The translations under genes and the position numbers were made by a program. Under the pieces are notes generated by a model. The model saw nothing but the letters and a program-made list of their open reading frames with translations. It ran no database searches and was not told the origin of the DNA. From positions 4,154,001-4,218,000 of the forward strand of contig NZ_CP011114.1 of the NCBI RefSeq assembly GCF_000993825.1: 64,000 nt of DNA, written 5' to 3'. This document shows positions 30,019 to 44,837 of this stretch, in pieces (position 1 is the first letter of the stretch; each line of letters starts with the position of its first letter). The stretch comes from Paenibacillus durus ATCC 35681 (GTDB lineage: Bacteria > Bacillota > Bacilli > Paenibacillales > Paenibacillaceae).

Positions 30019-30720
30019 TTAGTTTTTTTCGCCGGGGAGCGTAATGTTTACCGTTCTCGTTTTCGGATCATAGCTTATCTTAGCTCCCATCGCCTCCGCC
30101 AGCATACGTGCCGGAACATAGGTAATGCCTTTATCAAGCACACCGTCGGCCGCCTTGACGCCGTTAACATGAACCGCCACGACAGTTTTATCATCCTTTA
30201 TTGGGGTTTCATTCTTCTTCAAAAGATCGTTTACAGCTGCCATAGCAGCCTCGGAAGGCCGTTCTCCGGCACGCAGCCGATCCAAAGCCAGTCCAAACGT
30301 CATTTGCAAATGGGAAAAATCTTTAAAACCACTCCAGTCGCCGCCCCACTCGAGGCCAAATGTTTTGGCGATTTGGACAACCTGACCCCAGTCCGCAAGC
30401 CGGTCTTCATTGCCGTCGCGCAGCATGTCCCACGAGACATTTTTTCCATCCGGAAGCAGTAGAGCAAAATCAACAGCCAGCCCGTAATTGTGGTAGCTGT
30501 ATCCTCCGCGCGCGTTCGTGACAACGGCCCCCGGCTTGGTTCGTCCCTGAGCGTATAACGCCTCTTGCTCGGCCATCGTTCGCAGCCCTTGGGTAATGAG
30601 GATGGGGATGCCGCAGGCATAGCAGCGCCCGATCAGCGCTTCAGCCGCCGCATGCACAGCCGGATTTAGCCCGGCCAGTTTGGCCGATGATTTATTTTGA
30701 ACCTGTGTCAGAGTCAGCAT
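30019..30720 (-). CDS. M15-type peptidoglycan peptidase with stalk domain (tailocin endolysin)
   Basis: A 233-residue protein. Residues about 10-150 form a VanY/CwlK-like M15 zinc peptidase: QGLRTMAEQEALYAQGRT, the zinc ligands in SYHNYGLAVDFAL, and WGGDWSGFKDFSHLQMT. The last 60 residues are a copper-amine-oxidase-N-like stalk repeat (VHVNGVKAADG, YVPARMLAEAMGA). It should cleave D-Ala or L-Ala-D-Glu peptide bonds and lyse the producer cell. AAAGGAGAAGGGA precedes the ATG. It is the last gene of the tail cluster and overlaps the membrane protein gene upstream. Confidence 0.8.
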   Translation of the reverse strand: MLTLTQVQNKSSAKLAGLNPAVHAAAEALIGRCYACGIPILITQGLRTMAEQEALYAQGRTKPGAVVTNARGGYSYHNYGLAVDFALLLPDGKNVSWDMLRDGNEDRLADWGQVVQIAKTFGLEWGGDWSGFKDFSHLQMTFGLALDRLRAGERPSEAAMAAVNDLLKKNETPIKDDKTVVAVHVNGVKAADGVLDKGITYVPARMLAEAMGAKISYDPKTRTVNITLPGEKN

Positions 30721-31087
30721 TCCCTTCTCCTTTCCGGTCAATCCGTCTGAAATAGACAAATTGGTCGTACCTACCTGAATGCGTCAGCGCGGCCAGGGTA
30801 ATTAATCCCGCAGTCGTTCCGAACTGGGCGAGCGTCCAGCCATACAGCAGCCAGGTTTCAAGCTCCGGAGTGGAGAGTCCGTATATGTCCGCAAAATAGG
30901 CCGCCAGTACAATCAGCATTTTGACCGTATACGCCACAAGAAAAAAGAGCATCGCCAGCATGAACACGCTGACCACGCCCTTTCGGAAACGCTCATGATA
31001 ATAAGCCTTATGGCGGTGAATGATATACAGCGAACAGCCGATGGCGGTGCTGTACAATAAGAGCAGAATGATATCAATTCCTTTCAT
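30692..31087 (-). CDS. Phage-type membrane protein, possible holin component
   Basis: A 131-residue protein with three membrane segments: about residues 4-22, 40-63 and 85-105. The C-terminus is charged. GAGGGGATGCCC precedes ATG 31087. It overlaps the endolysin start by 29 bases and the 66-residue gene upstream by 14, so the four lysis genes are tightly packed. A holin or holin-partner role follows from size, topology and place; I recognise no named family. Confidence 0.6.
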   Translation of the reverse strand: MKGIDIILLLLYSTAIGCSLYIIHRHKAYYHERFRKGVVSVFMLAMLFFLVAYTVKMLIVLAAYFADIYGLSTPELETWLLYGWTLAQFGTTAGLITLAALTHSGRYDQFVYFRRIDRKGEGNADSDTGSK

Positions 31088-31274
31088 GGGCATCCCCTCG
31101 ATCATAAATCAAGTATTGGGCGAACCGGTTGCGCCTGATCTCTTCCTGTATCTCCCGCGATGTGTCACAGTAGCGGCTGATAGCAAGCGTCACACGGGTG
31201 GACGCCTGCCGCAGCTCCCTTTCTTTTTCCGCATGCAGGGGGAGAAAAAAACGCCAAATCCATGGAAACCGCAT
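31074..31274 (-). CDS. Small tail-cluster protein of 66 residues
   Basis: The product starts MRFPWIWRFFLPLHAEKERELRQ, with an amphipathic N-terminus and a charged helical rest. There is no full membrane helix. GGGGGGCTTAAAGC before the ATG gives a good binding site, and it starts three bases after the preceding stop. Packing between two lysis-type genes supports a real gene, perhaps an XhlA-like or holin accessory protein. The function is not known. Confidence 0.55.
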   Translation of the reverse strand: MRFPWIWRFFLPLHAEKERELRQASTRVTLAISRYCDTSREIQEEIRRNRFAQYLIYDRGDAHERN

Positions 31275-31277
31275 GCT

Positions 31278-31559
31278 TTAAGCCCCCCTGTCTTCCGTTT
31301 GATCGACTTTCAATTTTTTGAGCACATCGAGCGTCGGCTGCATGAAATCGGAACGTTCCTTATCGAGAATCGCCTGCAGCCGGTCGCGATCCTCCTCAGC
31401 CTTGTCCAGCAGCTCCCGGGGCACCAAGCTTCCTTTGGCGATCGCCCGCAGCAGCATAATAACCACAATCATCAGAATCAACGCCACAACATAAGCGAGC
31501 CCGTATTTGTCCGCCAGCGGCAGCAGTTTCTCCAACTGCGCAATGTCTCCCTGTTCCAT
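31278..31559 (-). CDS. Holin-like protein with one membrane helix
   Basis: A 93-residue protein. One strong hydrophobic helix (about residues 22-40, AYVVALILMIVVIMLLRAI) is flanked by a charged N-terminus and a long charged C-terminal coil. ATG 31559 has AGGGACGGG upstream. It opens the lysis module. Topology fits small holins or XhlA/BhlA-type proteins; the exact family is uncertain. Confidence 0.6.
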   Translation of the reverse strand: MEQGDIAQLEKLLPLADKYGLAYVVALILMIVVIMLLRAIAKGSLVPRELLDKAEEDRDRLQAILDKERSDFMQPTLDVLKKLKVDQTEDRGA

Positions 31560-31692
31560 TTTCCCGTCCCTTTCTTTCATTTAATTCAAGAAGAAACGCC
31601 TGACGGCGTCCCCAAAGACGCATGTGCGTTTCTCGTAGAAATATAAGGCCATTTATTAGCGTGAAACTTATAAATCCTTATATTTTAAAAAA

Positions 31693-31709
31693 CCCCCGTC
31701 CAGCGGGGG
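31693..31709 (-). terminator. Intrinsic terminator between tail and lysis modules
   Basis: A five-base G/C stem CCCCC / GGGGG with a 7-base loop and a T-run on the minus strand. It follows the small gene at 31782-31886 and precedes the lysis genes, so lysis genes may have their own promoter or depend on read-through. Confidence 0.65.
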
Positions 31710-31781: not shown

Positions 31782-31886
31782 TCACGCCATTACAATGATT
31801 TGGCGCACTTCCTCTTGTAATGCTGCTGGGACTTCATCTACCGTCTTTAGTCCCTTACGGATCAAGTCCGCGTATACTTTAGCCAT
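31782..31886 (-). CDS. CD1375-like small phage protein of 34 residues
   Basis: The product begins MAKVYADLIRKGLKTVDEVP, a pattern I know from the short CD1375-type proteins placed behind tail fibre genes in Firmicute prophages. AAGGAGGGGAACCCTA precedes the ATG, which overlaps the end of the xkdW-like gene by eight bases. The function is unknown. Confidence 0.65.
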   Translation of the reverse strand: MAKVYADLIRKGLKTVDEVPAALQEEVRQIIVMA

Positions 31887-32247
31887 TAGGGTTCCCCTCC
31901 TTCAGCGCCAGCAGTTGCTCATACATCTCGGCCAAGGCGAGCTGCACATTCGTTGTCTCCTCCCCGGCGGTTTTCAGCTTGCCGTTCGCATCTTCCAGGG
32001 CAGCCTTGGTATCCGCGAGTTCCTTACGCAGCTGTTCGAGTTCGTCCGGCTCCGCCGGCGGCTTGTTCGCCTCGGCTTCCAGGCACGCTTCCCAGGCGGC
32101 TTGCAGTTCCTCTTCGGTCGGCCGTGGGGCATCCAGGTTCCAGACGGCGATATACGGGCCTTTGCCGTCCGACTTATCAAGTAGCACAAAATCTTTATCC
32201 ACCTGGACAGATGGAAAGATATGTTTTATCGCAAGGTATAGGTCCAC
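31879..32247 (-). CDS. xkdW: XkdW-like tail protein
   Basis: A 122-residue protein in the place of PBSX xkdW, directly after the fibre gene. The first 50 residues form a compact domain (MDLYLAIKHIFPSVQVDKDF, then YIAVWNLDAPRPTEEEL); the rest is a charged coiled coil. AGGAGGATGAAACG precedes the start. In PBSX-like elements this protein is associated with the tail fibre, possibly in attachment or assembly. The gene symbol reflects position and length. Confidence 0.6.
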   Translation of the reverse strand: MDLYLAIKHIFPSVQVDKDFVLLDKSDGKGPYIAVWNLDAPRPTEEELQAAWEACLEAEANKPPAEPDELEQLRKELADTKAALEDANGKLKTAGEETTNVQLALAEMYEQLLALKEGNPNG

Positions 32248-32261: not shown

Positions 32262-33581
32262 TTAAGCAATCTTTATAACTTGCATATACGTGTAATATCC
32301 GTCCGGGTTTGTTGTTGTTCCGCCCCGGCTAGATGTTACCCACATGGCTAGTTTAGCATTTGCAGATGCTACAATGATGGCGGAGCCAGACAATTGTTGG
32401 TAACCTGATGATCCGGGCCTTTGATGGTCGACATTAAGCAAAACGGCAGCATCCGAACCTACAGCAAGCTTGAGTTCGTCCCCTGTAACTGCGTTTGACA
32501 CTTCGGCAGCCGCATTAACTAGATACATCCCCGCTGTTGGACAAGTGAATAATCCGGTTGATGTATCATAGTTACCTAGATTGTCATTCGACTCCGCGCC
32601 GCAAATAACTCTTAGCCAAGAGTTGGCAGAACTTATTGTTTGTTGCGACGTATGGCTGGCGGATACAAAAGGCCGGGAACCAGTTGTATTATCTCCCCAT
32701 GGATTGAGGACTCCATAGGAAGAAACGGAACCTCCGTTTTGTGAAGCTGTCGGTATAGTTCCGGTTAAAGCATTACCATTCAGCACAACCGAGCCAGCTT
32801 CCGCTCCCATAATGCCAACTGCATTGCCCGAACCAACACAGCTCCACGCGAAAACCTCGCTGTTCTGTCCCCCATAAATTCCCACATATTTATTGGAGAA
32901 ACTACATGTATAGCAGTACACTTTCGAGCTTGTGGAAACCAGTCCGTGATATTGTGTCGTAGAGGCGCTGGCAGAACAGTATAAGAACTCCGCATTTGTG
33001 CAGCTTATCGCTGTGAAAGCCGTTCGTGCCGCTGTCAGAGCGTTGAATCCTTTAACGGAGACCTTTACTGAACAACCAGAAATGTCGAATGATTGAATAT
33101 TACATGACTGTGAGAGGTCATTAATTGACGGATTAAACGAGATGACACCAGATCCGGATATTCCTCCCATTCCTAGGTTTTCATTATAAGTCCCGGCGGC
33201 AACGTTAATGGTGATGGAATGATTAACGACTGGCGGAATCATACTAATCGCCTTACCAATCGTCCTAAACGCCCCCGCCGCCGTATTCGCCAGCCCGTTA
33301 TTACCGTCATTCCCATCTGTACGCACATAATAAGTAATATCCGCCGTAGTTGCTTGTACGGCAGTTCCCGGAAGTTGCCCAGCAGGCAGCTTCGCCGAAG
33401 CGTCCAGCGTGGCTACGCCGTTCGCCGCTCCCTTCTGGGTTAGGGGGACCGAGGCGGCTGTCTGGTCCTGCAGGCTCTTCACCGCAGAATCCAGCGTATC
33501 CATATTGCCGTTAAGATCGGCAATGTCTACAATGTCGGTTCCCTCCGGTTTTTTCAAACCAAGGTTATTAGTCGTTCGCAT
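32262..33581 (-). CDS. xkdV: Tail fibre / receptor-binding protein
   Basis: A 439-residue fibre. Residues 1-75 are an attachment region (KKPEGTDIVDIADLNGNMDTLD and LDASAKLPAGQLPG repeats, common at fibre N-termini). Residues about 85-290 are Gly/Ser/Asn-rich with the periodicity of a right-handed beta-helix. The last 130 residues (SFVSASHTSQQTIS..., SNAVTGDELKLAV) resemble a C1q/TNF-like trimeric head. This protein sets which cells the particle binds. It replaces the longer PBSX XkdV; the symbol is positional. Confidence 0.7.
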   Translation of the reverse strand: MRTTNNLGLKKPEGTDIVDIADLNGNMDTLDSAVKSLQDQTAASVPLTQKGAANGVATLDASAKLPAGQLPGTAVQATTADITYYVRTDGNDGNNGLANTAAGAFRTIGKAISMIPPVVNHSITINVAAGTYNENLGMGGISGSGVISFNPSINDLSQSCNIQSFDISGCSVKVSVKGFNALTAARTAFTAISCTNAEFLYCSASASTTQYHGLVSTSSKVYCYTCSFSNKYVGIYGGQNSEVFAWSCVGSGNAVGIMGAEAGSVVLNGNALTGTIPTASQNGGSVSSYGVLNPWGDNTTGSRPFVSASHTSQQTISSANSWLRVICGAESNDNLGNYDTSTGLFTCPTAGMYLVNAAAEVSNAVTGDELKLAVGSDAAVLLNVDHQRPGSSGYQQLSGSAIIVASANAKLAMWVTSSRGGTTTNPDGYYTYMQVIKIA

Positions 33582-33592: not shown

Positions 33593-34144
33593 CTATTCAT
33601 ATACTCGCAAGTCCTCCCAGGTCTTGGCGTGCGCCGCGTTCCAGGTCAGCGCCTTAAGCGCGGTCCACCAGGTGAAGGTATACTGGAAGCGATAGGTCAG
33701 ATGAGCCGGCTTGATCTCCTCGATGATTTGAATGAGGTCGTCCAGATTGGCCGGAATTCCGAGCGTGCCGACGAATCGGACTTCGAAGCTGTACTCGCCT
33801 GGAACCTCCGTCACCTCAACCTCTCCCCCGGAAAAAGCAGAAGCTGTCCGCCGGATCATGTCCGGCGTCGTCGTTCCCGTACCTCTCAGCTTCGCCGTGA
33901 TTCGCTCCCTGCGGGCAGCGTAAGTCTTGGTCCGGTCGACGTTCAGCCCCAGCTCATTCTCCCACCGGTCCAGCATCCAGGTTGCCGTATCTACATTCAG
34001 CTGGCCGCGATGATCTTCCAGCGTAGACCAGGCGTCCCCGCACTCTGCGGTATGAACGCCTTGCATCGTCTCCATCTCCAGGATGCCACGATAATAATCC
34101 GGCAAATAATCCATGAGGTCAGTAAACAACTCATTAGCTGCCAT
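33593..34144 (-). CDS. xkdU: Baseplate/tail protein XkdU (Mu gp48-like)
   Basis: A 183-residue protein, nearly the same length as PBSX XkdU. It starts LFTDLMDYLPDYYRGILEMETMQG and has DRWENELGL and RRERITAKLRGTGTTT, features of the DUF2313/YmfQ family that joins baseplate and fibre. It overlaps xkdT by 11 bases. It would sit at the baseplate periphery and carry the fibres. Confidence 0.8.
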   Translation of the reverse strand: MAANELFTDLMDYLPDYYRGILEMETMQGVHTAECGDAWSTLEDHRGQLNVDTATWMLDRWENELGLNVDRTKTYAARRERITAKLRGTGTTTPDMIRRTASAFSGGEVEVTEVPGEYSFEVRFVGTLGIPANLDDLIQIIEEIKPAHLTYRFQYTFTWWTALKALTWNAAHAKTWEDLRVYE

Positions 34145-35207
34145 CCTGCACCTCCAACATCACGGCGCCGAATAGCGGCACCTCTTCGGCTCCAAGTGTT
34201 ACGTTACCCACGCCGCCATTCAGCAGCAGGTTCGCATAATCCGCAACCCCCTCGGTGCCTAGCAGCAGAGCGCCGATGACGGATTGGCTGATATATGTCG
34301 CGGTAAATCCTTTTTCCTTGCGGTAGTTCTCAAGAGCCGCTTGAAATCGCTCCTTCACCTCTTGCAGCTCATATCCGGAAGCCAGCGTGACCACTGCGGA
34401 GACCGTTATGGTCTTGCCCTGAACCGAAGCTGCCGTAACCACCGCTCCAACGGGCGCCTGTCCTTCTCCTTGTCCCGGAGCGGGGTCGATATATTGCTGC
34501 ACCTGATCCACAAGCGGCTGGGAGGCCGGTTTTATCTCCGCATCGGCAATCGTTACCTTCACCGTCTTCGGACCATTCCACAGCGGAAATACGCGCGCGC
34601 CGCCCACGCCTGGAATTTGCAGCGCCCATTCCGCATAATGGGCCTTGTTGCCGCTTGTCGCCGGACGTCTGGCCGAATCGAAATAACGCTGCCGCAGCGT
34701 CTCGTCGTCTTCTGCATCCTCTCCGGGAATCAGCAGGCGAACCGCCTCGCCCCGCGACAGCTGCGGAATGTAGTCGATGGGCAGGAGCGCGCCGGAATTA
34801 CGGTTTCCCAACGCTCCGGCCGTTTCGCAGGTGAGCCGGTAATTGCCGGGAGACAGCTTCTCCGCCGCCGTATAGTTCAATTGATCGAGCGAAAAGCGGC
34901 TGCCGATCGGAATATCCAGCCCTCCGCCGCCGTCCGCATAGAACGTCCCTTGAATTTCGGCCGGGCTTGCCGGACGTCTTGTGATGCCCGACCATGCGAT
35001 GCTCCGCTCCAGAAACTCGCCGGTCGCCGTATCGGCAAAGAACAGATTCGTATTCAGCTCAAGCTCGACATACATCTGGGCCAATTCCGCCGCAGCAGGG
35101 GCCAAGGCATCATAAATGATGCTGCCTTCTCTTTTGTCCAGCTCTTCCGGTACACGATCCAGCATCCGCTCCAGAATCGCCCCGAATGATTGGTCAGCCA
35201 TTGGCAT
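34134..35207 (-). CDS. xkdT: Baseplate wedge protein XkdT (gpJ family)
   Basis: A 357-residue baseplate J-like protein. FGAILERMLDRVPEELDKREGSIIYDALAP is the typical N-terminus of this family, and DDETLRQRYFDSARRPATSGNKAHYAEWA the typical centre. It forms the wedges that change shape to trigger sheath contraction. A start two codons later is possible. It overlaps xkdS by 14 bases. Confidence 0.9.
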   Translation of the reverse strand: MPMADQSFGAILERMLDRVPEELDKREGSIIYDALAPAAAELAQMYVELELNTNLFFADTATGEFLERSIAWSGITRRPASPAEIQGTFYADGGGGLDIPIGSRFSLDQLNYTAAEKLSPGNYRLTCETAGALGNRNSGALLPIDYIPQLSRGEAVRLLIPGEDAEDDETLRQRYFDSARRPATSGNKAHYAEWALQIPGVGGARVFPLWNGPKTVKVTIADAEIKPASQPLVDQVQQYIDPAPGQGEGQAPVGAVVTAASVQGKTITVSAVVTLASGYELQEVKERFQAALENYRKEKGFTATYISQSVIGALLLGTEGVADYANLLLNGGVGNVTLGAEEVPLFGAVMLEVQDGS

Positions 35208-35613
35208 TCAGCTCCTTTCTGATTTGGATATCTCCATAGCGTGACCTCGCCGTAATGTCAATTGTTACAGTCTCCCCGTTAAACGAAACCTCCAGCTGCT
35301 CCACTCCCTCAACCCGGTCGTCCTGAAGCAGCGCTTCCGTCACAACCCGCCGAATCTCCGGTCTAGCCAGCAGCCGATCCTGACCCAGCACCAGATTCCA
35401 CTCCGTTCCATAATTGGAGCTGTAAATAAGCTGTTCATACCGGAGCGTGCGCAGCGTCTTATCCACTGCCTGCTTTAGAGCATCCAGACCGTCTACATAG
35501 CCGGTAATCCGCCCCTTTTTCCAGTCGATGCCGTAGGTTAAGCTCGGGGATTCAGCGGCTTCCCCCTCTACCTGTTCTGTAATGTAACCGGACTGTCCCG
35601 CTTCGGGAATCAT
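35194..35613 (-). CDS. xkdS: Baseplate protein XkdS (DUF2634, gp25-like)
   Basis: A 139-residue protein matching XkdS in size and place. TYGIDWKKGRITGYVDGLDALKQAV and YGTEWNLVLGQDRLLARPEIRRVV are the DUF2634 core. Proteins of this kind link the wedge to the first sheath ring. Its start overlaps the end of xkdR by four bases. Confidence 0.85.
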   Translation of the reverse strand: MIPEAGQSGYITEQVEGEAAESPSLTYGIDWKKGRITGYVDGLDALKQAVDKTLRTLRYEQLIYSSNYGTEWNLVLGQDRLLARPEIRRVVTEALLQDDRVEGVEQLEVSFNGETVTIDITARSRYGDIQIRKELNANG

Positions 35614-35906
35614 GGCGACTTCACCAGCCTGTCCAGCACGACATAGCTCTGGCCGCCCTGCATGCGCAGCAGCAGAACACGGTCGCCCGCTTCAAGCCCC
35701 CGCCGCAGCACAACTTCCCCGCCATCCAGCGGGATTTTGCTCTCCATGACCGATTCGGGCAGAACGAGCGCGTTTCCGGGCAAAATAAATTTTTGATCAA
35801 TCTGGATTTGCAGCGGCGCTCCCGCAATTACCGTTCCATAAAAAAAAGCCACCGGATTGCTGCTGTCCACCGCTCCGAGGCTTGCTTTTTTAATAATATC
35901 CAACAC
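35610..35906 (-). CDS. xkdR: Tail protein XkdR (DUF2577)
   Basis: A 98-residue protein, close to PBSX XkdR. The sequence forms a small beta-rich domain (FFYGTVIAGAPLQIQIDQKF, then VLLLRMQGGQSYVVLDRL), typical of the OB-fold-like DUF2577 family near the spike. It lies between the hub gene xkdQ and the wedge gene xkdS. Confidence 0.8.
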   Translation of the reverse strand: MLDIIKKASLGAVDSSNPVAFFYGTVIAGAPLQIQIDQKFILPGNALVLPESVMESKIPLDGGEVVLRRGLEAGDRVLLLRMQGGQSYVVLDRLVKSP

Positions 35907-36911: not shown

Positions 36912-37661
36912 TCAAGGCAGCTTGATCGTCTTGCCAACCGGAAGCTTCCTCAGCTCACTGTCGGGAATGGCGTTAAGCTTCTGGATTTCCTTCCACCTGC
37001 TGCCGTCGCTCAGTTCCTTTTGCGCGATTTTCCACAGATTGTCGCCCGCTTTCAGCTTATAGACAGCCGGGGCTTTCCGGTCGCCTGCTCTCTTCTGCTG
37101 CGTCTTGGCCGCTCCCTTGACAACTTTTACCGGGGCCGCCTGGTAGAACACATACTTTTTGAGCGAGAGCGAATATTCGATATCTCCTGAAGTACCGGCG
37201 CTGAGCTTCCAGTTGAAGCTCTCAATGCTCATGGCCATGCTCAAGGGTAAATCATTGGAATAAGTGGAATTTTCACTATACCGCGAAGCGTTCAGCCAGC
37301 TTGTCGGTGTCGCCTTCGGTTCCTTGATTTCCAGACCGGAAAAAACAAAACGGATCGGCCTGCGGCTCGTCATCCATTTTTTGATCATCTCCACATATTC
37401 AAAAGGTTTAAGCAACCGGTTCTTCCCTGTCTCCGGCACGAGGACGAACGGATAGCGCTGCGCCGGAAAGATGCTTTCCAGCGTAATCTCGGTCAGCTTG
37501 GGATAGGAAATAGCGTTGATTTCACCCAAATCGATAATGGTATAGCTTTTGCCTTCACCCGCTTCCTTGATCTCCAGCGTCTCGGGATTGACCGGCAGGC
37601 GGAAGATATCCTCCATATTGTTATAGCTGAGAAAAAAACCGTACTCCTGATGCGTGTTCAT
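36912..37661 (-). CDS. xkdP: LysM-containing baseplate protein XkdP
   Basis: A 249-residue protein. The first 170 residues are the XkdP/YqbP domain (FRLPVNPETLEIKEAGEGKSYTI...), and residues about 197-247 are one LysM motif (YKLKAGDNLWKIAQKEL). LysM binds peptidoglycan GlcNAc and may help the tail tip engage the wall. Its start overlaps the tape measure stop by four bases. Confidence 0.88.
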   Translation of the reverse strand: MNTHQEYGFFLSYNNMEDIFRLPVNPETLEIKEAGEGKSYTIIDLGEINAISYPKLTEITLESIFPAQRYPFVLVPETGKNRLLKPFEYVEMIKKWMTSRRPIRFVFSGLEIKEPKATPTSWLNASRYSENSTYSNDLPLSMAMSIESFNWKLSAGTSGDIEYSLSLKKYVFYQAAPVKVVKGAAKTQQKRAGDRKAPAVYKLKAGDNLWKIAQKELSDGSRWKEIQKLNAIPDSELRKLPVGKTIKLP

Positions 37662-39535
37662 GTATATACCCCCTGTGCGGTCGACACGAACTCCTCGCTC
37701 AGCTTTTGATTAATTTTGTTGATAATCGAGTCGATATCTCCGGCGTTGTTAATATTTCCGGTTGTTACCTGCACCGTTGGCGTCAGCTCAACAAAATTTT
37801 GAATCGCCTGGATTTCGGCCAGGTCGCGCAGCATAGCCAAATCATCGCTGGAAATATCCACGTTATCTTTGACGGAGCCGACCTCTCCTACACGGGCGAC
37901 GTTGTTGATGTTACCCATGTTGTTCATGTTGCCCAGGCTGTTCCTATTGCCCTGCCCCGGATTTTGAAGCATTTTCTGCTGCTTCTGGATTTTGGTATCG
38001 TCTTTTAATTCCTTTACCTTGGTGTTGAATTTGTCCACCGTATCTTTTCCTACCTGGCCGTACTGCTTGGCGGCAATGGAAGGATCGACAAAAGCCTTCT
38101 TCTGGCTGTTTATAACTGGCTTATCGCTTACTGGCTCCGGTATCATCTTCCGCACGTTATCAATCATGCCGCTGAACACATGCGGGTCTTCCGGGTCAAG
38201 CAGATTGACTTTTACATTGGCTAGATTTTCAAATCCGGGGATATTGCTCAGAAAATCCGTTACGGCCTTGAATTTGGTTAATACTTTGTTCACCGCCGAA
38301 GCGATTACCTTCACAAACCCGCCGGCAAAGTTCTCCACACCTAGCGCCATTTGATAAATGAAGTTCAGAAAATTCATCGCCAGATCATAGAATAATTTCT
38401 TCACGGCAAAGCTGGGGTCAATGAACAGATTACGGAAGAAGTCCGCAAAAATAATAAAGGTGTTATACAGGCCAATAACAATGTTCTCAATAAAACCCTT
38501 CAGCCAGCCGAAGCCCTCAGCAATGGCGACGACAACTTCTCCCACGGTGACACCCGACTGCATCAGGATATAAATCAGCAGCGCGACCGCGGCGACGATC
38601 AGCAGAATCGGCCAATTGGCTACAAGCCAAGCGGCCGCGAGCGAATACACCTGAACAATCATGGCAGCCAGATAGACAAAGGCGATTGCCGCCAAGATCG
38701 GACCGATAACCGACCAGTTCTGCTGGATAACGCCGCCCATATAGATCAGGCCTTCCACTACCATCGAGATGGCGGTTGCCGCGACTAAGAAGAGATTCGC
38801 CATGAGATTAATTGCAGCCGTCATCTGATCCGATTTAAAGGCATTATTCAGGGCATCAAGCGCGGGTCGCAGCGCCACAAGCGCCTTTTGCCCTATCAAT
38901 GCATAAGCTCCGTTTATATTATCCTGGAGCGTTTTCCAATTGTTCTCGTCTACATCCGTTTTATCACCTTTTGCCGCACCCTTGATCGCTTTCTCGCCCA
39001 GCGATTTCGCCTTGTCAAAGACAGAAGCAACATCCAAGCCCTTCAAAGCGCTGACCGTTTTGGACAGAAAATCACCCTTTTTCTCCGGACCATTCGACGT
39101 GACCGCTCCTCCGGCTGTTGCAGCGCCTCCCCCGGCTTCACCCGCTGATGCCCCCGAAGCAGCCTGCTTTCTGGAAAAAAGCCGGGCTACGGCCTTTTCG
39201 CCAAAATATTTAGCTACTTCAAACGTATTAATGTTTAGGACATCCAGTACATAGCCGAGCTTGTCCATAAAGCTTTTTTTCGCCTTCTCAGCGTCGCCGT
39301 CCGCGCTAGACGATTGTTCAGAGAGCTTACGCGCCGCTTCCTGGGCCTGCATAAAGCCTTCCACTAAGGACTTGTTCTTTTCTTCGATCTGCTCCAGTAT
39401 TTTCTGAAGGTCGTTCAGCGTATTAGCGGCTATTTCTAAGTTCTGATTGAACCGTTCGCATTCCGCATTCACATTGCGCCAGACCGTTAGCGCGCGTACC
39501 GGTACTGATGCGCTGCTTGTTTCCCCGTTATTCAT
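37658..39535 (-). CDS. xkdO: Tail tape measure protein (short XkdO)
   Basis: A 625-residue protein with a coiled-coil N-terminus (about residues 25-110), a helical middle and a strongly hydrophobic block of several helices (about 240-420), as usual for tape measures. It lies between the chaperone and xkdP, where PBSX has XkdO of over 1,300 residues. Since tape length sets tail length, this particle should have a much shorter tail than PBSX. MNNMGNINN-type Asn/Met-rich sequence near residue 535 is low complexity. Confidence 0.85.
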   Translation of the reverse strand: MNNGETSSASVPVRALTVWRNVNAECERFNQNLEIAANTLNDLQKILEQIEEKNKSLVEGFMQAQEAARKLSEQSSSADGDAEKAKKSFMDKLGYVLDVLNINTFEVAKYFGEKAVARLFSRKQAASGASAGEAGGGAATAGGAVTSNGPEKKGDFLSKTVSALKGLDVASVFDKAKSLGEKAIKGAAKGDKTDVDENNWKTLQDNINGAYALIGQKALVALRPALDALNNAFKSDQMTAAINLMANLFLVAATAISMVVEGLIYMGGVIQQNWSVIGPILAAIAFVYLAAMIVQVYSLAAAWLVANWPILLIVAAVALLIYILMQSGVTVGEVVVAIAEGFGWLKGFIENIVIGLYNTFIIFADFFRNLFIDPSFAVKKLFYDLAMNFLNFIYQMALGVENFAGGFVKVIASAVNKVLTKFKAVTDFLSNIPGFENLANVKVNLLDPEDPHVFSGMIDNVRKMIPEPVSDKPVINSQKKAFVDPSIAAKQYGQVGKDTVDKFNTKVKELKDDTKIQKQQKMLQNPGQGNRNSLGNMNNMGNINNVARVGEVGSVKDNVDISSDDLAMLRDLAEIQAIQNFVELTPTVQVTTGNINNAGDIDSIINKINQKLSEEFVSTAQGVYT

Positions 39536-39548: not shown

Positions 39549-40150
39549 TCATCTCTTTCTTCCCTTGCCTCTTGAGCGCTCCCGCTTTTCCTTATCCACT
39601 CGGACGGCGATCATCGCGTAGATGGCGGCCCGTTCGCGGACGGAGAGCGCCATAAGCTCATGGGGCAAAATATGCAGCTCATGGAGGGCGTAGTAGGCCA
39701 GATTGGCCTCTCCGTCGCCCTCGTTAATCAGTTTTTTACTTCGTCCACCAATTCGTTCATATCGGTGCCGAAGCCATTAAGCGCCTGCACCCGCTCGCCG
39801 AGCGCGGCGAATTCGCCGGGCAGAAGCATTTTGCGCAGCAGCGCCTCCGCGCCCAGTACGCTGTAAGAGCGCTGCAGCTCCGCATTTTTCAGATCGGGAT
39901 ATACGACGCTCGCCGTCATCAGCTTGGCCATATAATCATTGGCGTCAATTTCCGGCGTGTAGACACCGTTCTTGCCTTTGATCTTCCGAGTCGCCGCCTT
40001 TCGGCATTCCTGATTCTCGTCCTCCGTCATGCTGCGCAGCTTCCAGGCCGCAGGCTTACCGTCCTTATCTTTAAAGCGCGTGGATACGATAAATTCCTCG
40101 GTCGTGTCGCAGTCTACATTTTGTGCAAAAAACAAACTAAATTCACTCAT
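39549..40150 (-). CDS. xkdN: Tail assembly chaperone, long form by -1 frameshift
   Basis: At the end of xkdN the codons GTA AAA AAC TGA contain the slippery heptamer A-AAA-AAC (39731-39737), one codon before the stop. In the -1 frame the sequence continues for 60 residues (LINEGDGEANLAYYALHELH, later ELMALSVRERAAIYAMIAVRV) and stops at 39549, just before the tape measure gene. This matches the gpG/gpGT type of chaperone: the short form coats the tape measure, the long form recruits tube protein. Confidence 0.75.
39728..40150 (-). CDS. xkdN: Tail assembly chaperone, short form (XkdN)
   Basis: A 140-residue protein matching PBSX XkdN (144) in length and place between tube and tape measure genes. 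Features such as FKDKDGKPAAWKLRSMTEDENQECRKAA and ANDYMAKLMTASVVYPDL are typical of this family. AGGAGGATTGG precedes the start. Its stop lies in the frameshift region described for the long form. Confidence 0.85.
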   Translation of the reverse strand: MSEFSLFFAQNVDCDTTEEFIVSTRFKDKDGKPAAWKLRSMTEDENQECRKAATRKIKGKNGVYTPEIDANDYMAKLMTASVVYPDLKNAELQRSYSVLGAEALLRKMLLPGEFAALGERVQALNGFGTDMNELVDEVKN

Positions 40151-40256: not shown

Positions 40257-40715
40257 TTAAGACGCCGAACCGAACGGCTTGCCAATCTCTACATCCTCGA
40301 ACGTGAAGCTGACCTCTTCCTCCAGCGCATCCGACTCGGTATCAAGCGAAGCCATAATGACGCTGTCGAGGTTGACGCCCTTCAGATTGACCCGCTGGGC
40401 GCCGATGCTGGACGAAGGGTCCTCGTTGATGACTTCGATATCGAAATACTGGTCAACCCCCGTATTCATGTAATCGAGCATCATTTGACGGAAACGGCTG
40501 GTCATATAAAAAATAGTCATCGAACCGCTTCCCGACCACCCCGTCGCTTTATGCTGGACGCCGCGGCGGCCCAGCGTTTTGACTTCCGCTTTTTGCTTCT
40601 CGACCGTAGCCTCCAGCTTTTTCACATAGAACATCTCTTCGATTTGGGTGCCAATCACCGCATAAGCGCGGCCTTCCTGACCGGAAATCGTGTCGCTAGC
40701 TTTCAAGAACGCCAT
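40257..40715 (-). CDS. xkdM: Tail tube protein XkdM
   Basis: A 152-residue tube protein, near PBSX XkdM (147). It begins MAFLKASDTISGQEGRAYAVI and contains GWSGSGSMTIFYMTSRFRQM, and ends in a beta-rich EVSFTFEDVEIGKPF. Hexameric rings of this protein form the inner tube pushed through the target envelope. It follows the sheath gene with one base between. Confidence 0.88.
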   Translation of the reverse strand: MAFLKASDTISGQEGRAYAVIGTQIEEMFYVKKLEATVEKQKAEVKTLGRRGVQHKATGWSGSGSMTIFYMTSRFRQMMLDYMNTGVDQYFDIEVINEDPSSSIGAQRVNLKGVNLDSVIMASLDTESDALEEEVSFTFEDVEIGKPFGSAS

Positions 40716-40716: not shown

Positions 40717-42039
40717 TTAAACCACCTTCACTTTCAGATATACTTTTTCTACCGAATCCACCGGTTTTACAGCCGTTTCCAGTACTACGCTATCGCTGTC
40801 GACGCCGGCAACGACGGAAATATCCGTCTGCGCGTTGAAGTTCTCAATGGCTCCGATATCCTGGAGATCGTTCATATAGGCAGCGCACTGCGACCAGAAC
40901 AGCGCACGTCCGTCCTCATTATTGGATACTTTGCCCACAAAGTAAGTTTCAAAAATACGCTTCAGATCAACCGCGATACCGTCCAGCACACGGAGAACCC
41001 GGTTCTTCGAGAAAGCCTTGTCTTTTGCCGGTGTGAACGCCGTAAGCGTATTGATATCCTGCTCGACCACCGCCTTTGTGCCGTTGTAAGTAAAGAGCAG
41101 TTCACCATTGAGGAGCGCCGCCGTCGTCTCGGAATGGCTTAAGCGGACATCGGCATCCACCGCATCGTCATAGGCCTGATAGGTCAGCGATTCGTTCACT
41201 GCGGCCGCTGCGGTCGCTCCCGCTGTCCATGCCACCGCATTCGTCTTGTCCACAACGGTTCCATCGCTTAGGATAACACCGTTTTTCACGCTGATGACTC
41301 CTTCGTAACCGGCGGTAGCGTAATCGGACACAACAGCCTGCACCTTCTTACCCTCGGAATCGCGCAGCCGTTTCACATAAGAGGTGTAGAGGGCTTTAAG
41401 CGAGTTGTCCTGCGAGATCAGGCCGACCGTTTGAAAATCCTGCACCTCCAGCGCGGTCAGAAAATCACTGTGGTTCTGATTGGTCACCGTCCCGTTGCTT
41501 CCGCCCGTAAGCGGAATTCCGGCAGACGCTGTCAGTCCCTCCGACCCGTTCGCCGCGAACGTAACATAGACGTTATCCAGCAAATCGGCTGCGGTCGCGA
41601 CCGTCTGTCTGTCCACTTCCGTTCCGTCAAGCAGCGTCTTTACATCGAACTTGGCCGGGTCCTCGATATTGCTTGCAATCACGACCGACAGATCATTGCC
41701 GCGTTCTCCGCCATATTGAGCGGTTGTCTTCAACCCGCTGGCTGTTGCCTCTGCTTTGACGCCGGTATTCAGGCGGTACAGCAGCAGCTTACCCGCACGC
41801 TTGAGCGTTTCGCGCACCGGAAGCAGCGCCTCATGCGTCCAGTCATATCCGAGCAGCTTCGCGATATCTGCCTGAGGCGTAATGCTGATGATTTCACCGG
41901 CAGGCCCCCAAGAGAGCGCCAGAGCCAGTGCGGCGGTGCCGCGTTCTCCCATTTTTCCGATTGCGCCCGATTGGGATGACACATTCACATACACCCCGGG
42001 ACGCACCTTGTTTTGCGTTGTCCATGTTCCTCCAGCCAT
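40717..42039 (-). CDS. xkdK: Contractile tail sheath protein XkdK
   Basis: A 440-residue sheath protein. MAGGTWTTQNKVRPGVYVNVSS and GERGTAALALALSWGPAGEI are the conserved N-terminus of phage sheath proteins; LLLYRLNTG and the C-terminal ISVVAGVDSDSVVLETAVKPVDSVEKVY complete the core. A sheath proves that the tail is contractile (R-type). AAGGAGGTTATCTA precedes the start, overlapping the stop of a small upstream gene. Confidence 0.92.
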   Translation of the reverse strand: MAGGTWTTQNKVRPGVYVNVSSQSGAIGKMGERGTAALALALSWGPAGEIISITPQADIAKLLGYDWTHEALLPVRETLKRAGKLLLYRLNTGVKAEATASGLKTTAQYGGERGNDLSVVIASNIEDPAKFDVKTLLDGTEVDRQTVATAADLLDNVYVTFAANGSEGLTASAGIPLTGGSNGTVTNQNHSDFLTALEVQDFQTVGLISQDNSLKALYTSYVKRLRDSEGKKVQAVVSDYATAGYEGVISVKNGVILSDGTVVDKTNAVAWTAGATAAAAVNESLTYQAYDDAVDADVRLSHSETTAALLNGELLFTYNGTKAVVEQDINTLTAFTPAKDKAFSKNRVLRVLDGIAVDLKRIFETYFVGKVSNNEDGRALFWSQCAAYMNDLQDIGAIENFNAQTDISVVAGVDSDSVVLETAVKPVDSVEKVYLKVKVV

Positions 42040-42215
42040 TAGATAACCTCCTTCGTTAAAAAGAGCTCCAGCTCTTGTCTAGCCTGTTCCAGCGTATAGC
42101 TTTGATCCTGCTGCAAAATCACGTCAAGCACATCCTTTTCCCTTGGCGTAAAAATCGCCGACTCCAGGATCTGGGTTTTGCCGAATACGATATTGTTCTC
42201 AATCATTGCGCTCAT
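42039..42215 (-). CDS. Small tail-cluster protein of 58 residues
   Basis: A 58-residue frame that overlaps its neighbours at both ends: ATGA with the gene before and TAATG with the sheath gene after. It begins MSAMIENNIVFGKTQILES and ends in a charged helix (SYTLEQARQELELFL). PBSX-like clusters have a similarly short gene before the sheath gene. Function unknown; the stop-start overlaps make a real gene very likely. Confidence 0.7.
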   Translation of the reverse strand: MSAMIENNIVFGKTQILESAIFTPREKDVLDVILQQDQSYTLEQARQELELFLTKEVI

Positions 42216-42625
42216 TTTAATCTTCCTTCCTCTGTGAATTGACCCATTCTCACTGCTTCAGGACGCTCGCTTTGCAGGTACAGCGAATACTCTGCCGTGA
42301 ACAGAGCCGCTTCTGCTGCCGCTCCGGCCGTCCAGGTCTGCCGTACACTGCGGTAGCTCACCCCGTCTCCTTCTACGAGGGTAAGAGCATCGCGCAAAGC
42401 GTCCGCCATAACCTCCGCCTCCGATACCGGAACACCTTCATAGCGGACACCGAACCGGTACACCGCCGCATATCGGTCTTCCCGCTGCCGGTCATACGCC
42501 GCCGAAACCAGAAACAGCCGAAAGCCCGGCGTCTGCGGCGGATCGTCACTCGAAATAACGGGAATGTCCGCAAAACGCTGCTCCAGCGCAGCCGTAATGC
42601 AGCTCCGCAAATGCTGTACAGACAT
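42212..42625 (-). CDS. Phage tail terminator-like protein (DUF6838 type)
   Basis: A 137-residue protein in the place of PBSX xkdJ. The pattern FRLFLVSAAYDRQREDRYAAVYRFGVRY and VMADALRDALTLV fits the DUF6838/tail-completion proteins that cap the tube. In a headless particle a cap is needed to finish the tail, which fits its retention here. It overlaps the small gene before the sheath. Confidence 0.65.
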   Translation of the reverse strand: MSVQHLRSCITAALEQRFADIPVISSDDPPQTPGFRLFLVSAAYDRQREDRYAAVYRFGVRYEGVPVSEAEVMADALRDALTLVEGDGVSYRSVRQTWTAGAAAEAALFTAEYSLYLQSERPEAVRMGQFTEEGRLK

Positions 42626-42708: not shown

Positions 42709-43005
42709 CCCCTCCCGTCTATCCCGATAGGCAAAACGGACATCATCCCTATGGATGACATCCGTTTGTTTAGGCAATGACCGAAAGAAACTTTCACCGC
42801 TATCTTGGCTCTACAGGTGTATCTGCGGCTTTGGCTGAAGCATTCATGCTCCTGCGGTGTTCTTTCGCTTCATTTGCCATGGTATAATCATATCTCCTTT
42901 TTTAGCGCATGAAGACGGCGTTCAGGCGAAGTTCGGAAGAAGATTGAGATGAAAAAAGACGCTTTTTCGGCGGCGAATAAATCTCTTCTTATTGAACCCT
43001 TCAAA

Positions 43006-43152: not shown

Positions 43153-43665
43153 TTATCGGATATTCGACAGTACGCCGGTGTTTGCCTTTTTCGTTTTGGA
43201 CGCCGCTTTAAGCATCGGGCCCAGCGACAGCATGTTCAGCTCCTTGAAAGCGAGAGCCATTTTATAAAAAGCGCGCGTCCGGATTTTTACATAAGTATCC
43301 TTGCTAATGGGCGGGTCGAATACATGATTGTACACCGTATAATCGAATACCTCATCCCTTCGCAAATACCTTTCGCGAACCAGCTGCTGTTCCCGGCTGT
43401 CCAGTCTCTCTACCACCGATTCCACAGCGGCACAGTACGCCCTCCGGGCGGCAGGCACGTCCACATTATGCGCAGCGAGCGAAGCGGTCGGATCTGCAAT
43501 AACATGCGTCGGTCCATGAAAACGTTCCGTGTAAGAATACGTAGTGGAAGCCTCTCTGGCCTCAAAAGTAATCGTTTTGAAAATCCGGTATTTCTCCAGC
43601 ATGCTTTCAATCGCTATTTGAGTTTGGCGCCGGTCAAGTTCAGGCAAGGAAGATAGATTCATCAT
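43153..43665 (-). CDS. ArpU/Xpf-type phage late transcription regulator
   Basis: A 170-residue protein; ATG 43665 has AAAGGAGCGC upstream, whereas longer starts lack a site. The sequence LPELDRRQTQIAIESMLEKYRI, a central TTYSYTERFHGPT and a C-terminal sigma-70-region-4-like part (LDSREQQLVRERYL, then ISKDTYVKIRTRAFYKMAL) match ArpU-type regulators. PBSX uses a similar sigma-like protein (Xpf) for its late operon. It is divergent from the Xre repressor and stands just before the tail operon, so it is the probable activator. Confidence 0.8.
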   Translation of the reverse strand: MMNLSSLPELDRRQTQIAIESMLEKYRIFKTITFEAREASTTYSYTERFHGPTHVIADPTASLAAHNVDVPAARRAYCAAVESVVERLDSREQQLVRERYLRRDEVFDYTVYNHVFDPPISKDTYVKIRTRAFYKMALAFKELNMLSLGPMLKAASKTKKANTGVLSNIR

Positions 43666-43856
43666 CGTGTAGCGCTCCTTTAACGGTTTTCTAGAAATTT
43701 GTTTCAGATGCAAAAGAAAAATGTGGTAGAATATTCTGTGTTCGCATCTTGTTCGTATTTTTCTATAATATACCACCTCGCATTGGGTTTCGTAAAATCC
43801 GGTTTTCAGCCATTTCGCACCGATAATCGCATAATAACTCCCATTTCCTTGTCTTA

Positions 43857-43909
43857 TGGCAAAATGTCCATTACTTTATTTACCTTTTGGCAAAATTAGA
43901 TTATAGTAA
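43857..43909 (+). promoter_or_regulatory. Probable repressor sites and xre promoter
   Basis: TGGCAAAAT occurs at 43857-43865 and 43888-43896, 31 bases apart, about three helical turns. TTGGCA (43887-43892) with a TATTAG after 17 bases could be the promoter of the xre gene. Repeated sites between divergent regulator genes suggest Xre operators. Confidence 0.45.
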
Positions 43910-43946
43910 TATTAGCAGACAATTGAATGCCAAGGAGTGTTACGGG

Positions 43947-44387
43947 ATGGAACATGAGTTTGGATTATATTTAAAACGGCTGCGCGAGAGCAAAGGTCTT
44001 ACCCTTAGCCAATTGGCTGTGGCGGCCGGCATCAGCGGTTCACAGATCTCACGGATCGAGAACGGGCTGCGCGGCGTACCTAAGCCGGCAACCTTGCGCA
44101 GACTGGCAGAAGCCATGAATGCCTCCTACGAAGAGCTTATGGAACGGGCAGGATACTTACAGGAATATGAGCAGATGGCTGAAGCGATACCGGAATGGGC
44201 GACCAGCAAAGACAAGCGCGATTTTAAAAAGATGCTGGAGGATGACGGAGAGCTGATGTTTGACGGAATTCCGCTTAACAAAGAGGACAGACAACGAATA
44301 AAAGACGTGCTGACAGGCTTATTCTGGGAAGCCAAGCAGATGAACAAACGAAAGCCAACTCCCAAACCAGACAAATCGGATAATTAA
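43947..44387 (+). CDS. Xre family repressor of the tail cluster
   Basis: A 146-residue protein; ATG 43947 has AAGGAG upstream. Residues 7-65 form a Cro/C1 helix-turn-helix (LGLYLKRLRESKG-like start, LSQLAVAAGISGSQISRIENG). The rest is helical and acidic and ends in a Lys/Pro-rich tail. It is followed by an ImmA-type protease gene and diverges from the ArpU-type gene. As in PBSX and ICEBs1, it should keep the element silent until cleaved after DNA damage. Confidence 0.85.
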   Translation: MEHEFGLYLKRLRESKGLTLSQLAVAAGISGSQISRIENGLRGVPKPATLRRLAEAMNASYEELMERAGYLQEYEQMAEAIPEWATSKDKRDFKKMLEDDGELMFDGIPLNKEDRQRIKDVLTGLFWEAKQMNKRKPTPKPDKSDN

Positions 44388-44423
44388 TGCCCTTAAACAA
44401 TACCTATGCTGCAGGTGAAGAAA

Positions 44424-44837
44424 ATGGATGAACTGGTCAAAAAGCTAATTAAAAAATATAAAACCAACTGTCCGTTTGAGCTATGCCGGGCTCTAGGTAT
44501 CCATGTCCGATTTATGAACCTGGGCGAAGGAACCAAAGGGTTATACTATCGCAAGCTTCGCAGACGATTTATTGTCATTCATAATGAGCTGTCTTTGGAA
44601 TGGCAGCGATTTGTTTGCGCGCATGAATTGGGCCATGACCGGCTGCATAAAGGCATTAACCGGTTCTTTTTGGAGGAGAGCTCTTATTTCGCCCCGGGCA
44701 AGCTGGAACGTCAGGCTAATCGGTTTGCCGTTCTCTTGTTAAGCGCCGCGGCCTCTCCCGAGCAGGATGAATCTTTGGAGAGTTATTATTCACGTTTAGG
44801 CATCCCGCCGGAAGTCGGCCTTTTTTTAGAGCCTTAA
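44424..44837 (+). CDS. ImmA/IrrE family metallopeptidase
   Basis: A 137-residue zinc protease with HELGH in FVCAHELGHDRLHKG and a later Glu in ESSYFAPGKLERQANRFAVLLL. Such proteins cleave the cognate Xre repressor after DNA damage; PBSX XkdA is of this type. The ATG at 44424 is preferred because AGGTG precedes it; one at 44406 has no site. It lies 36 bases after xre in the same direction, so the pair forms one unit. Confidence 0.85.
   Translation: MDELVKKLIKKYKTNCPFELCRALGIHVRFMNLGEGTKGLYYRKLRRRFIVIHNELSLEWQRFVCAHELGHDRLHKGINRFFLEESSYFAPGKLERQANRFAVLLLSAAASPEQDESLESYYSRLGIPPEVGLFLEP

What the first reader, a model, noticed from the sequence alone, without database searches (positions are those of the whole stretch)
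30019..44837. Compact headless PBSX-type contractile tail system (tailocin) with full control set
Sequence shows sheath, tube, chaperone, tape measure, LysM protein, hub, wedge, fibre, holin-like genes and endolysin in PBSX order, plus an ArpU-type activator, Xre and an ImmA-type protease. No terminase, portal, protease, capsid or integrase frame is present between the regulators and the sheath; only about 440 non-coding bases stand there. Known PBSX keeps its head genes. The natural inference is a domesticated R-type bacteriocin released by lysis after DNA damage.
Basis: partly seen in the sequence, partly recalled or inferred. Interest (0 to 1): 0.78.

Follow-up and report, generated by a model that had tools for sequence, protein, structure and literature searches.

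The report
Headless phage-tail bacteriocin of Paenibacillus
A Paenibacillus bacterium, like about half of the members of its genus examined, carries at one fixed chromosomal spot a complete contractile phage tail with its own switch and lysis genes but no phage head, most likely a domesticated weapon against rival bacteria whose targeting fibre and tape-measure protein are swapped between species.

Summary
Window 30019-44837 encodes a complete contractile tail, lysis genes, an ArpU-family activator and a divergent Xre/ImmA pair, and no head, packaging or integration gene was found. The gap where relatives keep the head block is 527 bp. The organism is a Paenibacillus near P. zanthoxyli. Orthologues (sheath at least 71% identical) occur in 48 of 100 genus genomes; ppc lies downstream of the tail in all 45 where both share a contig, tRNA genes beyond ImmA in 45 of 47. 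In 12 of 20 fetched sites without it, ppc and tRNAs stand 264-773 bp apart. Head proteins find nothing in 47 orthologous loci. Tail genes are under purifying selection. The 46 fibres share one anchor but have 37 C-terminal families; the tape measure is a second traded cassette. A quick tree joins two headless Paenibacillus groups beside headed prophages. Operators and a late-promoter-like element are conserved. The sheath is nearer to Jimmer phages than to PBSX-like PBP180: PBSX-like in order, not a PBSX. Best reading: an R-type tailocin switched on through Xre/ImmA and ArpU and released by lysis. Particles, killing and DNA-damage induction are untested.

The parts
30019..30759 (-). endolysin, D-Ala-D-Ala carboxypeptidase/VanY-type with C-terminal Cu_amine_oxidN1 domain
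   Evidence: PF13539 8.8e-16, PF02557 2.9e-9; phrog_2649 endolysin 8.4e-43
30692..31105 (-). o137, holin-like membrane protein candidate (two hydrophobic stretches)
   Evidence: no family hit; hydropathy segments 9-30 and 39-74; found in 33 of 57 loci
31074..31274 (-). o66, small protein of the lysis segment without hydrophobic stretch
   Evidence: no family hit; 92-100% identical in three siblings
31278..31580 (-). o100, holin-like candidate with one strong hydrophobic segment
   Evidence: hydropathy 19-54; 98-100% identical in three siblings; retained at tail-less sites G105, G013, G033, G107
31879..32247 (-). XkdW-like protein, probable fibre partner or chaperone
   Evidence: PF09636 2.7e-19
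32262..33581 (-). tail fibre: conserved N-terminal anchor, swapped C-terminal part with weak C1q-like match
   Evidence: phrog_4577 5.8e-14; C1q PF00386 5.4e-4, below cut-off; 37 C-terminal families among 46, one anchor family
33593..34144 (-). baseplate protein, Mu gp48-like
   Evidence: PF10076 8.2e-34, phrog_521 4.8e-57
34134..35207 (-). baseplate J wedge
   Evidence: PF04865 1.9e-61
35194..35613 (-). sheath initiator / wedge
   Evidence: PF10934 1.5e-24
35610..35906 (-). DUF2577 protein
   Evidence: PF10844 1.2e-21
35910..36872 (-). hub, YQBQ-like
   Evidence: PF24032 6.3e-110
36912..37661 (-). LysM tail protein
   Evidence: LysM PF01476 1.4e-6; phrog_380 1.2e-61
37658..39535 (-). tape measure, 625 aa; conserved C-terminal end, the rest belongs to an exchangeable cassette (class D)
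   Evidence: phrog_1068 1.3e-76; cassette exchange
39728..40150 (-). XkdN-like tail assembly chaperone
   Evidence: PF08890 8e-40
40257..40715 (-). tail tube
   Evidence: PF09393 5.5e-49
40717..42039 (-). contractile sheath
   Evidence: PF04984 1.3e-34 and three more sheath domains; solved relatives 3hxl 4.2e-147, 3lml 5.4e-99
42039..42215 (-). phrog_966 small protein
   Evidence: 1.3e-14
42212..42625 (-). tail terminator
   Evidence: PF20765 3.5e-10
42836..42905 (-). late-promoter-like element: TATGATTATACC, then CATGGCAAATGAAGC and the GAGCATGAATGC inverted repeat
   Evidence: 47 of 49 gap regions hold CATGGCAAATGAAGC with at most 1 mismatch; the exact words CATGGCAAATGA and GAGCATGAATGC occur in the 48 loci only there; one copy of the 28-base form in the own genome at up to 3 mismatches
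43153..43665 (-). ArpU-family late activator (mechanical ORF runs to 43776)
   Evidence: TIGR01637 1.7e-20, phrog_248 1.1e-26; only match in the genome
43735..43780 (-). arpU promoter region: GTGGTATATTAT followed by a GAACA direct repeat
   Evidence: alignment of window and 21 loci; repeat in 48 of 50 regions, no shuffle control made
43849..43893 (.). paired operator candidates TTGCCAnnAGGYAA, 31 bp apart (second copy 1 mismatch)
   Evidence: two sites (up to 2 mismatches) in 47 of 50 regions, 45 of them 29-32 bp apart; 1 of 1000 mononucleotide shuffles has two
43948..44387 (+). Xre repressor (mechanical ORF from 43887)
   Evidence: PF13560 2.6e-18, PF01381 1.2e-14
44406..44837 (+). ImmA/IrrE-type metallopeptidase (likely anti-repressor)
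   Evidence: PF06114 4.6e-18; the only strong of two matches in the genome

Best explanation
An R-type (contractile) tailocin of Paenibacillus, derived from the tail and lysis modules of a Jimmer/EJ-1/PBSX-like temperate myovirus by loss of the terminase-to-neck block, and kept by the host at one chromosomal site between ppc and a tRNA-rRNA array. Proposed working: Xre sits on the paired operators and silences the arpU promoter; a stress signal, probably DNA damage, lets ImmA cleave or release Xre; ArpU is made and turns on a late promoter that drives terminator to endolysin; tails assemble on the tape measure, holin-like proteins and endolysin lyse the producer, and the fibre's variable C-terminus picks rival strains whose membrane is breached by the contracted tube. 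Shown here: gene content, absence of head, site conservation, selection, fibre and tape-measure exchange, conserved control elements. Inferred: repression, cleavage, induction signal, activation, assembly, lysis and killing.
For: Complete tail, lysis and control set. No head-type match in the window or in 47 orthologous loci, all of which answer to tail controls. 48 of 100 genus genomes carry the orthologue; ppc 12.4-22.7 kb from the sheath, on the downstream side, in 45 of 45 with both on one contig; tRNA within 2 kb of ImmA in 45 of 47, the other two contigs ending first. ppc and tRNAs 264-773 bp apart in 12 of 20 fetched sites without it. In 45 loci, 14 genes each, 2 of 630 length checks fail, both in one locus. 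dN/dS at most 0.35 for every gene among four siblings. One anchor, 37 C-terminal fibre families in 46. Two headless groups form one clade (SH-aLRT 97) beside five headed prophages. Conserved operators and late element. The same switch logic is shown experimentally for the headless Listeria monocin: CI-like repressor plus DUF955 protease MpaR (PMC6872733, passages).
Against: No particle, lysis or killing data. No LexA-box-like site in the window, so DNA-damage induction rests on analogy. Among the 42 more distant carriers sheath and ppc scores do not correlate (Spearman 0.17, p 0.28), so strict vertical descent is not shown; the range is narrow. Some relatives show damage: G071 tape measure in two frames, G120 endolysin in three pieces, G034 tube in two overlapping pieces. 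Several genomes lack the tail but keep regulators, so it is dispensable. The tree is a quick one without bootstrap.
Confidence: 0.85

Rival explanations
1. A decaying prophage that has lost its head genes and persists by chance or hitch-hiking.
For: Regulator-only or tail-less remnants exist in relatives G105, G013, G033, G107, G026; a few relatives carry broken tail or lysis genes.
Against: Same genes intact in 45 loci with 2 of 630 length checks failing (tape measure, fibre and lysis genes not among the 14 checked); dN/dS far below 1; control elements conserved in 47 of 49 and 47 of 50 regions.
Confidence: 0.04
2. The tail borrows heads from the resident prophage near 3.72-3.74 Mb, giving DNA-packaging PBSX- or GTA-like particles.
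For: Terminase, portal and capsid genes exist elsewhere in the genome; Listeria MpaR coordinates monocin and prophages (PMC6872733, passages), and this genome has one strong ImmA, at the tailocin.
Against: That prophage has its own sheath and a 1351-aa protein at the tape-measure position and no tblastn match to any tailocin protein; neck proteins are absent from the tailocin; late element and ArpU were found once each.
Confidence: 0.04
3. An extracellular contractile injection system that delivers a protein effector.
For: Contractile tail under host control; tape measure has long hydrophobic stretches.
Against: No ATPase or toxin family among the 21 ORFs scanned; lysis gene, ArpU, LysM and XkdW proteins are phage-type. 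The eCIS definition is recalled, not taken from a call.
Confidence: 0.04
4. Mainly an altruistic or developmental lysis device; the tail is secondary.
For: o100 with Xre and ImmA (with ArpU in G107) survives at tail-less sites.
Against: No endolysin match remains at those four sites, while in carriers sheath, tube and chaperone are among the most conserved genes and fibres diversify.
Confidence: 0.03

Closest known systems
Listeria monocin (PMC6872733, passages read)
   Same: Gram-positive, capsid genes missing, no early genes and no excision, conserved in most Listeria species, CI-like repressor next to a DUF955 protease, lysis module
   Different: F-type, non-contractile (title of a cited paper and recall); here a contractile sheath, an ArpU activator, the ppc/tRNA site and traded fibre and tape-measure cassettes
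Diffocin of Clostridioides difficile (PMC4453579 and PMC6088184, passages read)
   Same: Contractile R-type bacteriocin of a Gram-positive with a separate receptor-binding protein
   Different: Sheath is remote (CD1363 matches only residues 192-439, E 3.7e-16). Absence of head genes from its cluster is recalled; the passages seen do not state it
PBSX-like elements: PBP180 (record) and B. pumilus Bp15.1PLP (PMC8347963, passages read)
   Same: Order of late activator, tail and lysis genes; XkdN, XkdW, LysM and hub families; locus beside tRNA genes in most Bacillus species
   Different: They keep terminase, portal and capsid, and package host DNA; sheath 39.6% identical to PBP180, whose protein at the tape-measure position is 1288 aa against 625 here
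Brevibacillus phage Jimmer2 (L138)
   Same: Nearest phage tail found: sheath 50.5%, tube 62%; terminator family, small protein, sheath, tube, XkdN, tape measure (677 aa), LysM, hub, baseplate in the same order
   Different: Complete phage with gp1-12 packaging, head and connector genes in front of the terminator gp13, and a regulator insert between tube and XkdN genes
Carotovoricin of Pectobacterium (PMC13195805, abstract and passages read)
   Same: Genus-wide, same neighbourhood, fibres exchanged across species; the authors also note varying conservation of the tape measure
   Different: Gram-negative; DNA-inversion system for fibres; the passages seen focus on fibre loci
R-type tailocins of solvent-producing Clostridium (PMC10538166, abstract and passages read)
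   Same: Gram-positive contractile tailocin loci common in a genus
   Different: Those loci keep the full structural set with capsid genes and integrase or resolvase; the review presents retained capsid genes as a Gram-positive feature, which this locus does not follow

Membership tests
R-type tailocin | Contractile sheath, tube, tape measure and baseplate encoded together | tested here: met
R-type tailocin | No capsid, portal, terminase or neck genes | tested here: met
   527-bp gap only
R-type tailocin | Own lysis genes and regulators | tested here: met
   endolysin, ArpU, Xre, ImmA; holin only by hydropathy
R-type tailocin | Fixed anchor with diversifying receptor-binding part | tested here: met
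   1 anchor family, 37 C-terminal families of 46
R-type tailocin | Maintained by selection at a stable site | tested here: met
R-type tailocin | Bactericidal DNA-free particle | not testable with these tools
   needs induction, electron microscopy and spot tests
PBSX | Head and packaging genes, host DNA packaged | tested here: not met
   genes absent; PBP180 has them
PBSX | PBSX-like tail gene order with XkdN, XkdW and LysM proteins | tested here: met
PBSX | Closest sequence kinship to PBSX-type tails | tested here: not met
   Jimmer and EJ-1 nearer than PBP180 by sheath
Diffocin family | Sheath orthologous to CD1363 | tested here: not met
   partial match E 3.7e-16 against 4.2e-147 for DSY3957
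Gene transfer agent | Terminase and capsid, DNA transfer | tested here: not met
   genes absent from the locus; DNA transfer itself not testable here
Extracellular contractile injection system | AAA ATPase and effector genes (recalled definition) | tested here: not met
   no such family among the 21 ORFs scanned

The most novel reading that the evidence does not exclude
The tape measure is a second, independently traded specificity or potency cassette: a few recurrent classes are kept across Paenibacillus species by balancing selection because the ejected tape measure (or the tail length it sets) decides whether a target envelope is breached, or because targets evolve resistance to a class.
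Probability: 0.25. Interest if true: 0.75.

Novelty: new member of a known kind. Interest (0 to 1): 0.52.

Why it matters
It gives a Gram-positive, contractile counterpart of the pattern known from carotovoricin: a head-free tail, one conserved site and traded fibres. A 2023 review (PMC10538166, passages) holds that Gram-positive R-type tailocin loci keep their capsid genes; this lineage does not. Headed sister prophages in the same genus allow the domestication step to be studied, and the tape-measure classes make a question testable that fibre-centred work leaves aside. Searches of the held library listed no paper whose title or abstract start describes a Paenibacillus tailocin; searches list only part of their hits, and the library lacks most subscription journals.

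Tried and rejected
A 26-codon ORF in the ArpU-terminator gap looked conserved, but relatives such as G007 (L040) have a one-base insertion that shifts the frame while the DNA downstream stays the same, so I read it as a DNA or RNA element, not a gene. No LexA box was found (the pattern is recalled). Rfam gave only RT-17 at E 0.038, below its gathering score, over the operator region. The operator pattern TTGCCANNAGGYAA has five exact copies in the genome, one at xre; the other four share one sequence, and one of them lies in the rRNA region of the window, so they look unrelated. Sheath and ppc scores correlate over 47 genomes (0.41, p 0.004) but not without the five nearest (0.17, p 0.28). Exchange of the fibre module between the tailocin and the headed prophage of one genome (G007) was looked for: the Mtd_N-type gene is 79% and gp48 and baseplate J 64-65% identical against 41-47% for hub and LysM, suggestive but not recent; the pair in G095 shows no such excess for gp48 (40%) and baseplate J (51%). 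The genome-contig scan reached only 6 loci, so prevalence rests on the genome search. Choices and dropped rows: G014 was first counted with the tandem headless loci, but its second tail has a neck protein and it was taken out. The tape measure of L070 (G071) is in two frames; it was put in class D by its 87-92% pieces and left out. L037 and L039 (short contigs) were left out of the completeness count. The core distance is built from sheath, tube, chaperone and hub, so low values for these four are by construction. L051 and L053 (other genera) sit on long branches and their place is unsure.
Full report
What is there. The segment 30019-44837 reads, on the minus strand from high to low coordinates: ArpU, a 527-bp gap, tail terminator, a 58-aa small protein, sheath, tube, XkdN chaperone, tape measure, LysM protein, hub, DUF2577, sheath initiator, baseplate J, gp48-like, fibre, XkdW, three small lysis-segment ORFs and an endolysin; Xre and an ImmA-type peptidase lie divergently on the plus strand. 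Seventeen head, packaging and neck proteins from headed relatives find nothing in the 64-kb window (best E 0.12), whereas three of four tail controls do; the short terminator control did not fire. Against all 47 fetched orthologous loci the same queries give no head-type hit at E 1e-3 and a tail-control hit in every one; each of 9 headed loci gives head-type hits, self-matches excluded.

Where it is. The six named hits of the genome collection are all Paenibacillus, the nearest P. zanthoxyli JH29 (98%) and P. forsythiae T98 (91%). A sheath search of 100 genomes of the genus found some match in 79; 48 (own genome included) have a close orthologue of at least 71% identity. ppc lies 12.4-22.7 kb from the sheath in the 45 in which both are on one contig, always on the downstream side; in the other three (G023, G024, G085) the two are on different contigs. 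A tRNA gene lies within 2 kb beyond ImmA in 45 of 47 fetched loci; the other two contigs end first. Of 20 ppc neighbourhoods fetched from genomes without the orthologue (20 of 52 such genomes), 12 have ppc and the tRNA array only 264-773 bp apart. Of the other eight, G105 and G013 keep o100, Xre and ImmA; G033 keeps o100, Xre and part of ImmA; G107 keeps ArpU too; G026 has an ABC transporter, a permease and a metallo-beta-lactamase-fold gene instead of the tail but keeps ArpU, Xre and ImmA; G035 has an endolysin-like fragment; G014 holds other genes; in G061 no tRNA gene was found in the rest of the contig. The simplest reading is gain at a tight ppc-tRNA junction, with later losses.

Domesticated, not decaying. 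In 45 complete loci, 14 genes each (tape measure, fibre, XkdW and lysis genes not among them), 2 of 630 length checks fail, both in one locus. Among G000, G029, G071 and G089 the sheath has dN/dS 0.06-0.07, tube 0-0.04, ArpU 0.04-0.11, ImmA 0.04-0.08, and no gene exceeds 0.35 (for fibre and swapped tape measures synonymous sites are saturated). Along the DNA, three siblings are mostly 93-95% identical to the window (86-87% around XkdW and the fibre edge in G071 and G089), with a break at the fibre's C-terminal part in 3 of 3 and, in G029 alone, at the tape measure, 37915-39534; a fourth, G024, is on a short contig.

Two traded cassettes. All 46 fibres (45 loci and the window) share one N-terminal anchor family but fall into 37 C-terminal families (last 150 residues, 50% identity over 70%), while the 46 sheaths form one family at the same cut-offs. 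The tape measure falls into classes A (14), B (13), C (12) and D (4) plus three single ones among 46; on a quick tree of the core tail they need 16 changes, against 6 at least and 25.4 in shuffles, so classes are partly clustered by descent but change often (17 of 43 inner branches of that tree are weak). Among 79 pairs of loci whose core proteins differ by less than 6%, the fibre differs by more than 35% in 59 and the tape measure in 32; the phrog_966 protein in 4 of 76, XkdW in 2 of 52, and the other 15 genes tested in none. The last 75-85 residues of the tape measure are 71-100% identical between class representatives, the rest 5-71%, so the exchange leaves the C-terminal end in place. A Pectobacterium study (PMC13195805, passages read) also mentions a variable tape measure but concentrates on fibres. 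In 37 of 45 loci an ORF of 317-362 aa lies between baseplate J and gp48 (L038 has a different one of 470 aa); the one tested (L044) has Mtd_N and DUF2793 domains; the window, its three siblings, G088 and three others lack it.

Origin. By sheath the nearest phages in the collection are Brevibacillus Jimmer-type (50.5%) and Streptococcus EJ-1 and kin (45.7-46.6%), against 39.6% for PBSX-like PBP180. In Jimmer2 terminase, portal, head and connector genes gp1-12 precede gp13, gp14 and the sheath gp15; gp13 is of the same terminator family as our 42212-42625. In PBP180 a sigma-like late factor is followed by terminase and head genes. Our locus equals this plan with everything from terminase to neck missing. 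In the same genus, five prophages with sheaths 56-59% identical to ours have capsid genes. On a quick tree of six tail proteins (40 rows) the 23 ppc-site rows form a clade (100), join six rows of another headless group (97), and stand beside the five headed prophages (100); one head loss would explain both headless groups. None of those six rows has a head-type hit. Two headless-looking loci of other genera lie elsewhere on long branches.

Control. Between xre and arpU, 47 of 50 regions have two TTGCCAnnAGGYAA sites (up to 2 mismatches), 45 of them 29-32 bp apart; 1 of 1000 shuffled regions has two. One window copy overlaps the mechanical Xre start, so the true start is likely 43948. Before arpU lie a conserved GTGGTATATTAT and a GAACA direct repeat (48 of 50 regions). 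In the late gap, CATGGCAAATGAAGC occurs with at most one mismatch in 47 of 49 regions, and its 28-base form once in the own genome. ArpU was found once and ImmA once strongly, with one weak second match. No LexA-like box is seen. The closest worked-out parallel is the Listeria monocin, where the DUF955 protease MpaR acts as anti-repressor (PMC6872733, passages).

How it most likely works. Xre represses, ImmA relieves, ArpU activates the late operon, tails assemble, the cell lyses, and the fibre directs killing of near relatives. Everything beyond gene content and conservation is inference from tailocin and ImmR/ImmA biology. A tail of about 94 nm would follow from 625 residues at a recalled 0.15 nm per residue.

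Known or new. It is an R-type tailocin by every feature that sequence could test here; activity could not be tested. It works like pyocins and monocins and is arranged like PBSX, but it is not a PBSX because head and packaging genes are absent, and not a diffocin by descent. The review PMC10538166 (passages) states that Gram-positive R-type tailocin loci retain capsid genes; this lineage is an exception. Whether diffocin clusters are another is recalled, not shown by the passages I read.

Noticed in passing
L054/L055 (G021), L056/L057 (G004), L058/L059 (G010), L060/L061 (G006), L062/L063 (G002): Two different contractile tails in tandem (sheaths about 10-11 kb apart), not at ppc where that could be checked (G006, G010); ArpU/Xre/ImmA found beside four of the five pairs (not in the G010 stretch); no head-type hit in these loci. 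The layout recalls the R/F pyocin pair.
   Followed up: partly
L064/L065 (G014): Two tails about 16 kb apart, but the tail in L064 (sheath 48%) is preceded by a neck protein gene, so at least that one may be a headed prophage.
   Followed up: partly
window 37658-39535 and 45 orthologous loci: Tape measure behaves as an exchangeable cassette with four recurrent classes on the core tree.
   Followed up: yes
L044:5481-6503 and the same place in 36 other ppc-site loci: Extra fibre-like protein (Mtd_N and DUF2793 domains in the one tested) between baseplate J and gp48; absent from the window's clade.
   Followed up: partly
L050:2988-4877 (G019): A pectate-lyase-like tail spike gene sits between ArpU and the tail terminator, where the ppc-site loci have only the late element.
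   Followed up: no
L051 (G056, another genus): A DnaB-like helicase gene is followed within about 0.9 kb by the tail terminator, without head-type hits: a possible separate head loss with a replication gene still present.
   Followed up: partly
L110, L111, L113, L121: Tail-less sites that keep o100 with Xre and all or part of ImmA (ArpU too in L121).
   Followed up: partly
L070 (G071): Tape measure split over two reading frames while the other genes checked are intact; may be sequencing error or loss of function.
   Followed up: no
G000 C1 3716000-3755999 (L034, L035): Separate contractile-tail prophage with terminase, portal, capsid, its own sheath and a 1351-aa protein with peptidase-like matches; the genome has only one strong ImmA, at the tailocin, so cross-control as in Listeria is conceivable.
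   Followed up: partly
window 43845-43922: Weak Rfam match to RT-17 RNA (E 0.038, under gathering score) over the operator region; probably chance.
   Followed up: no
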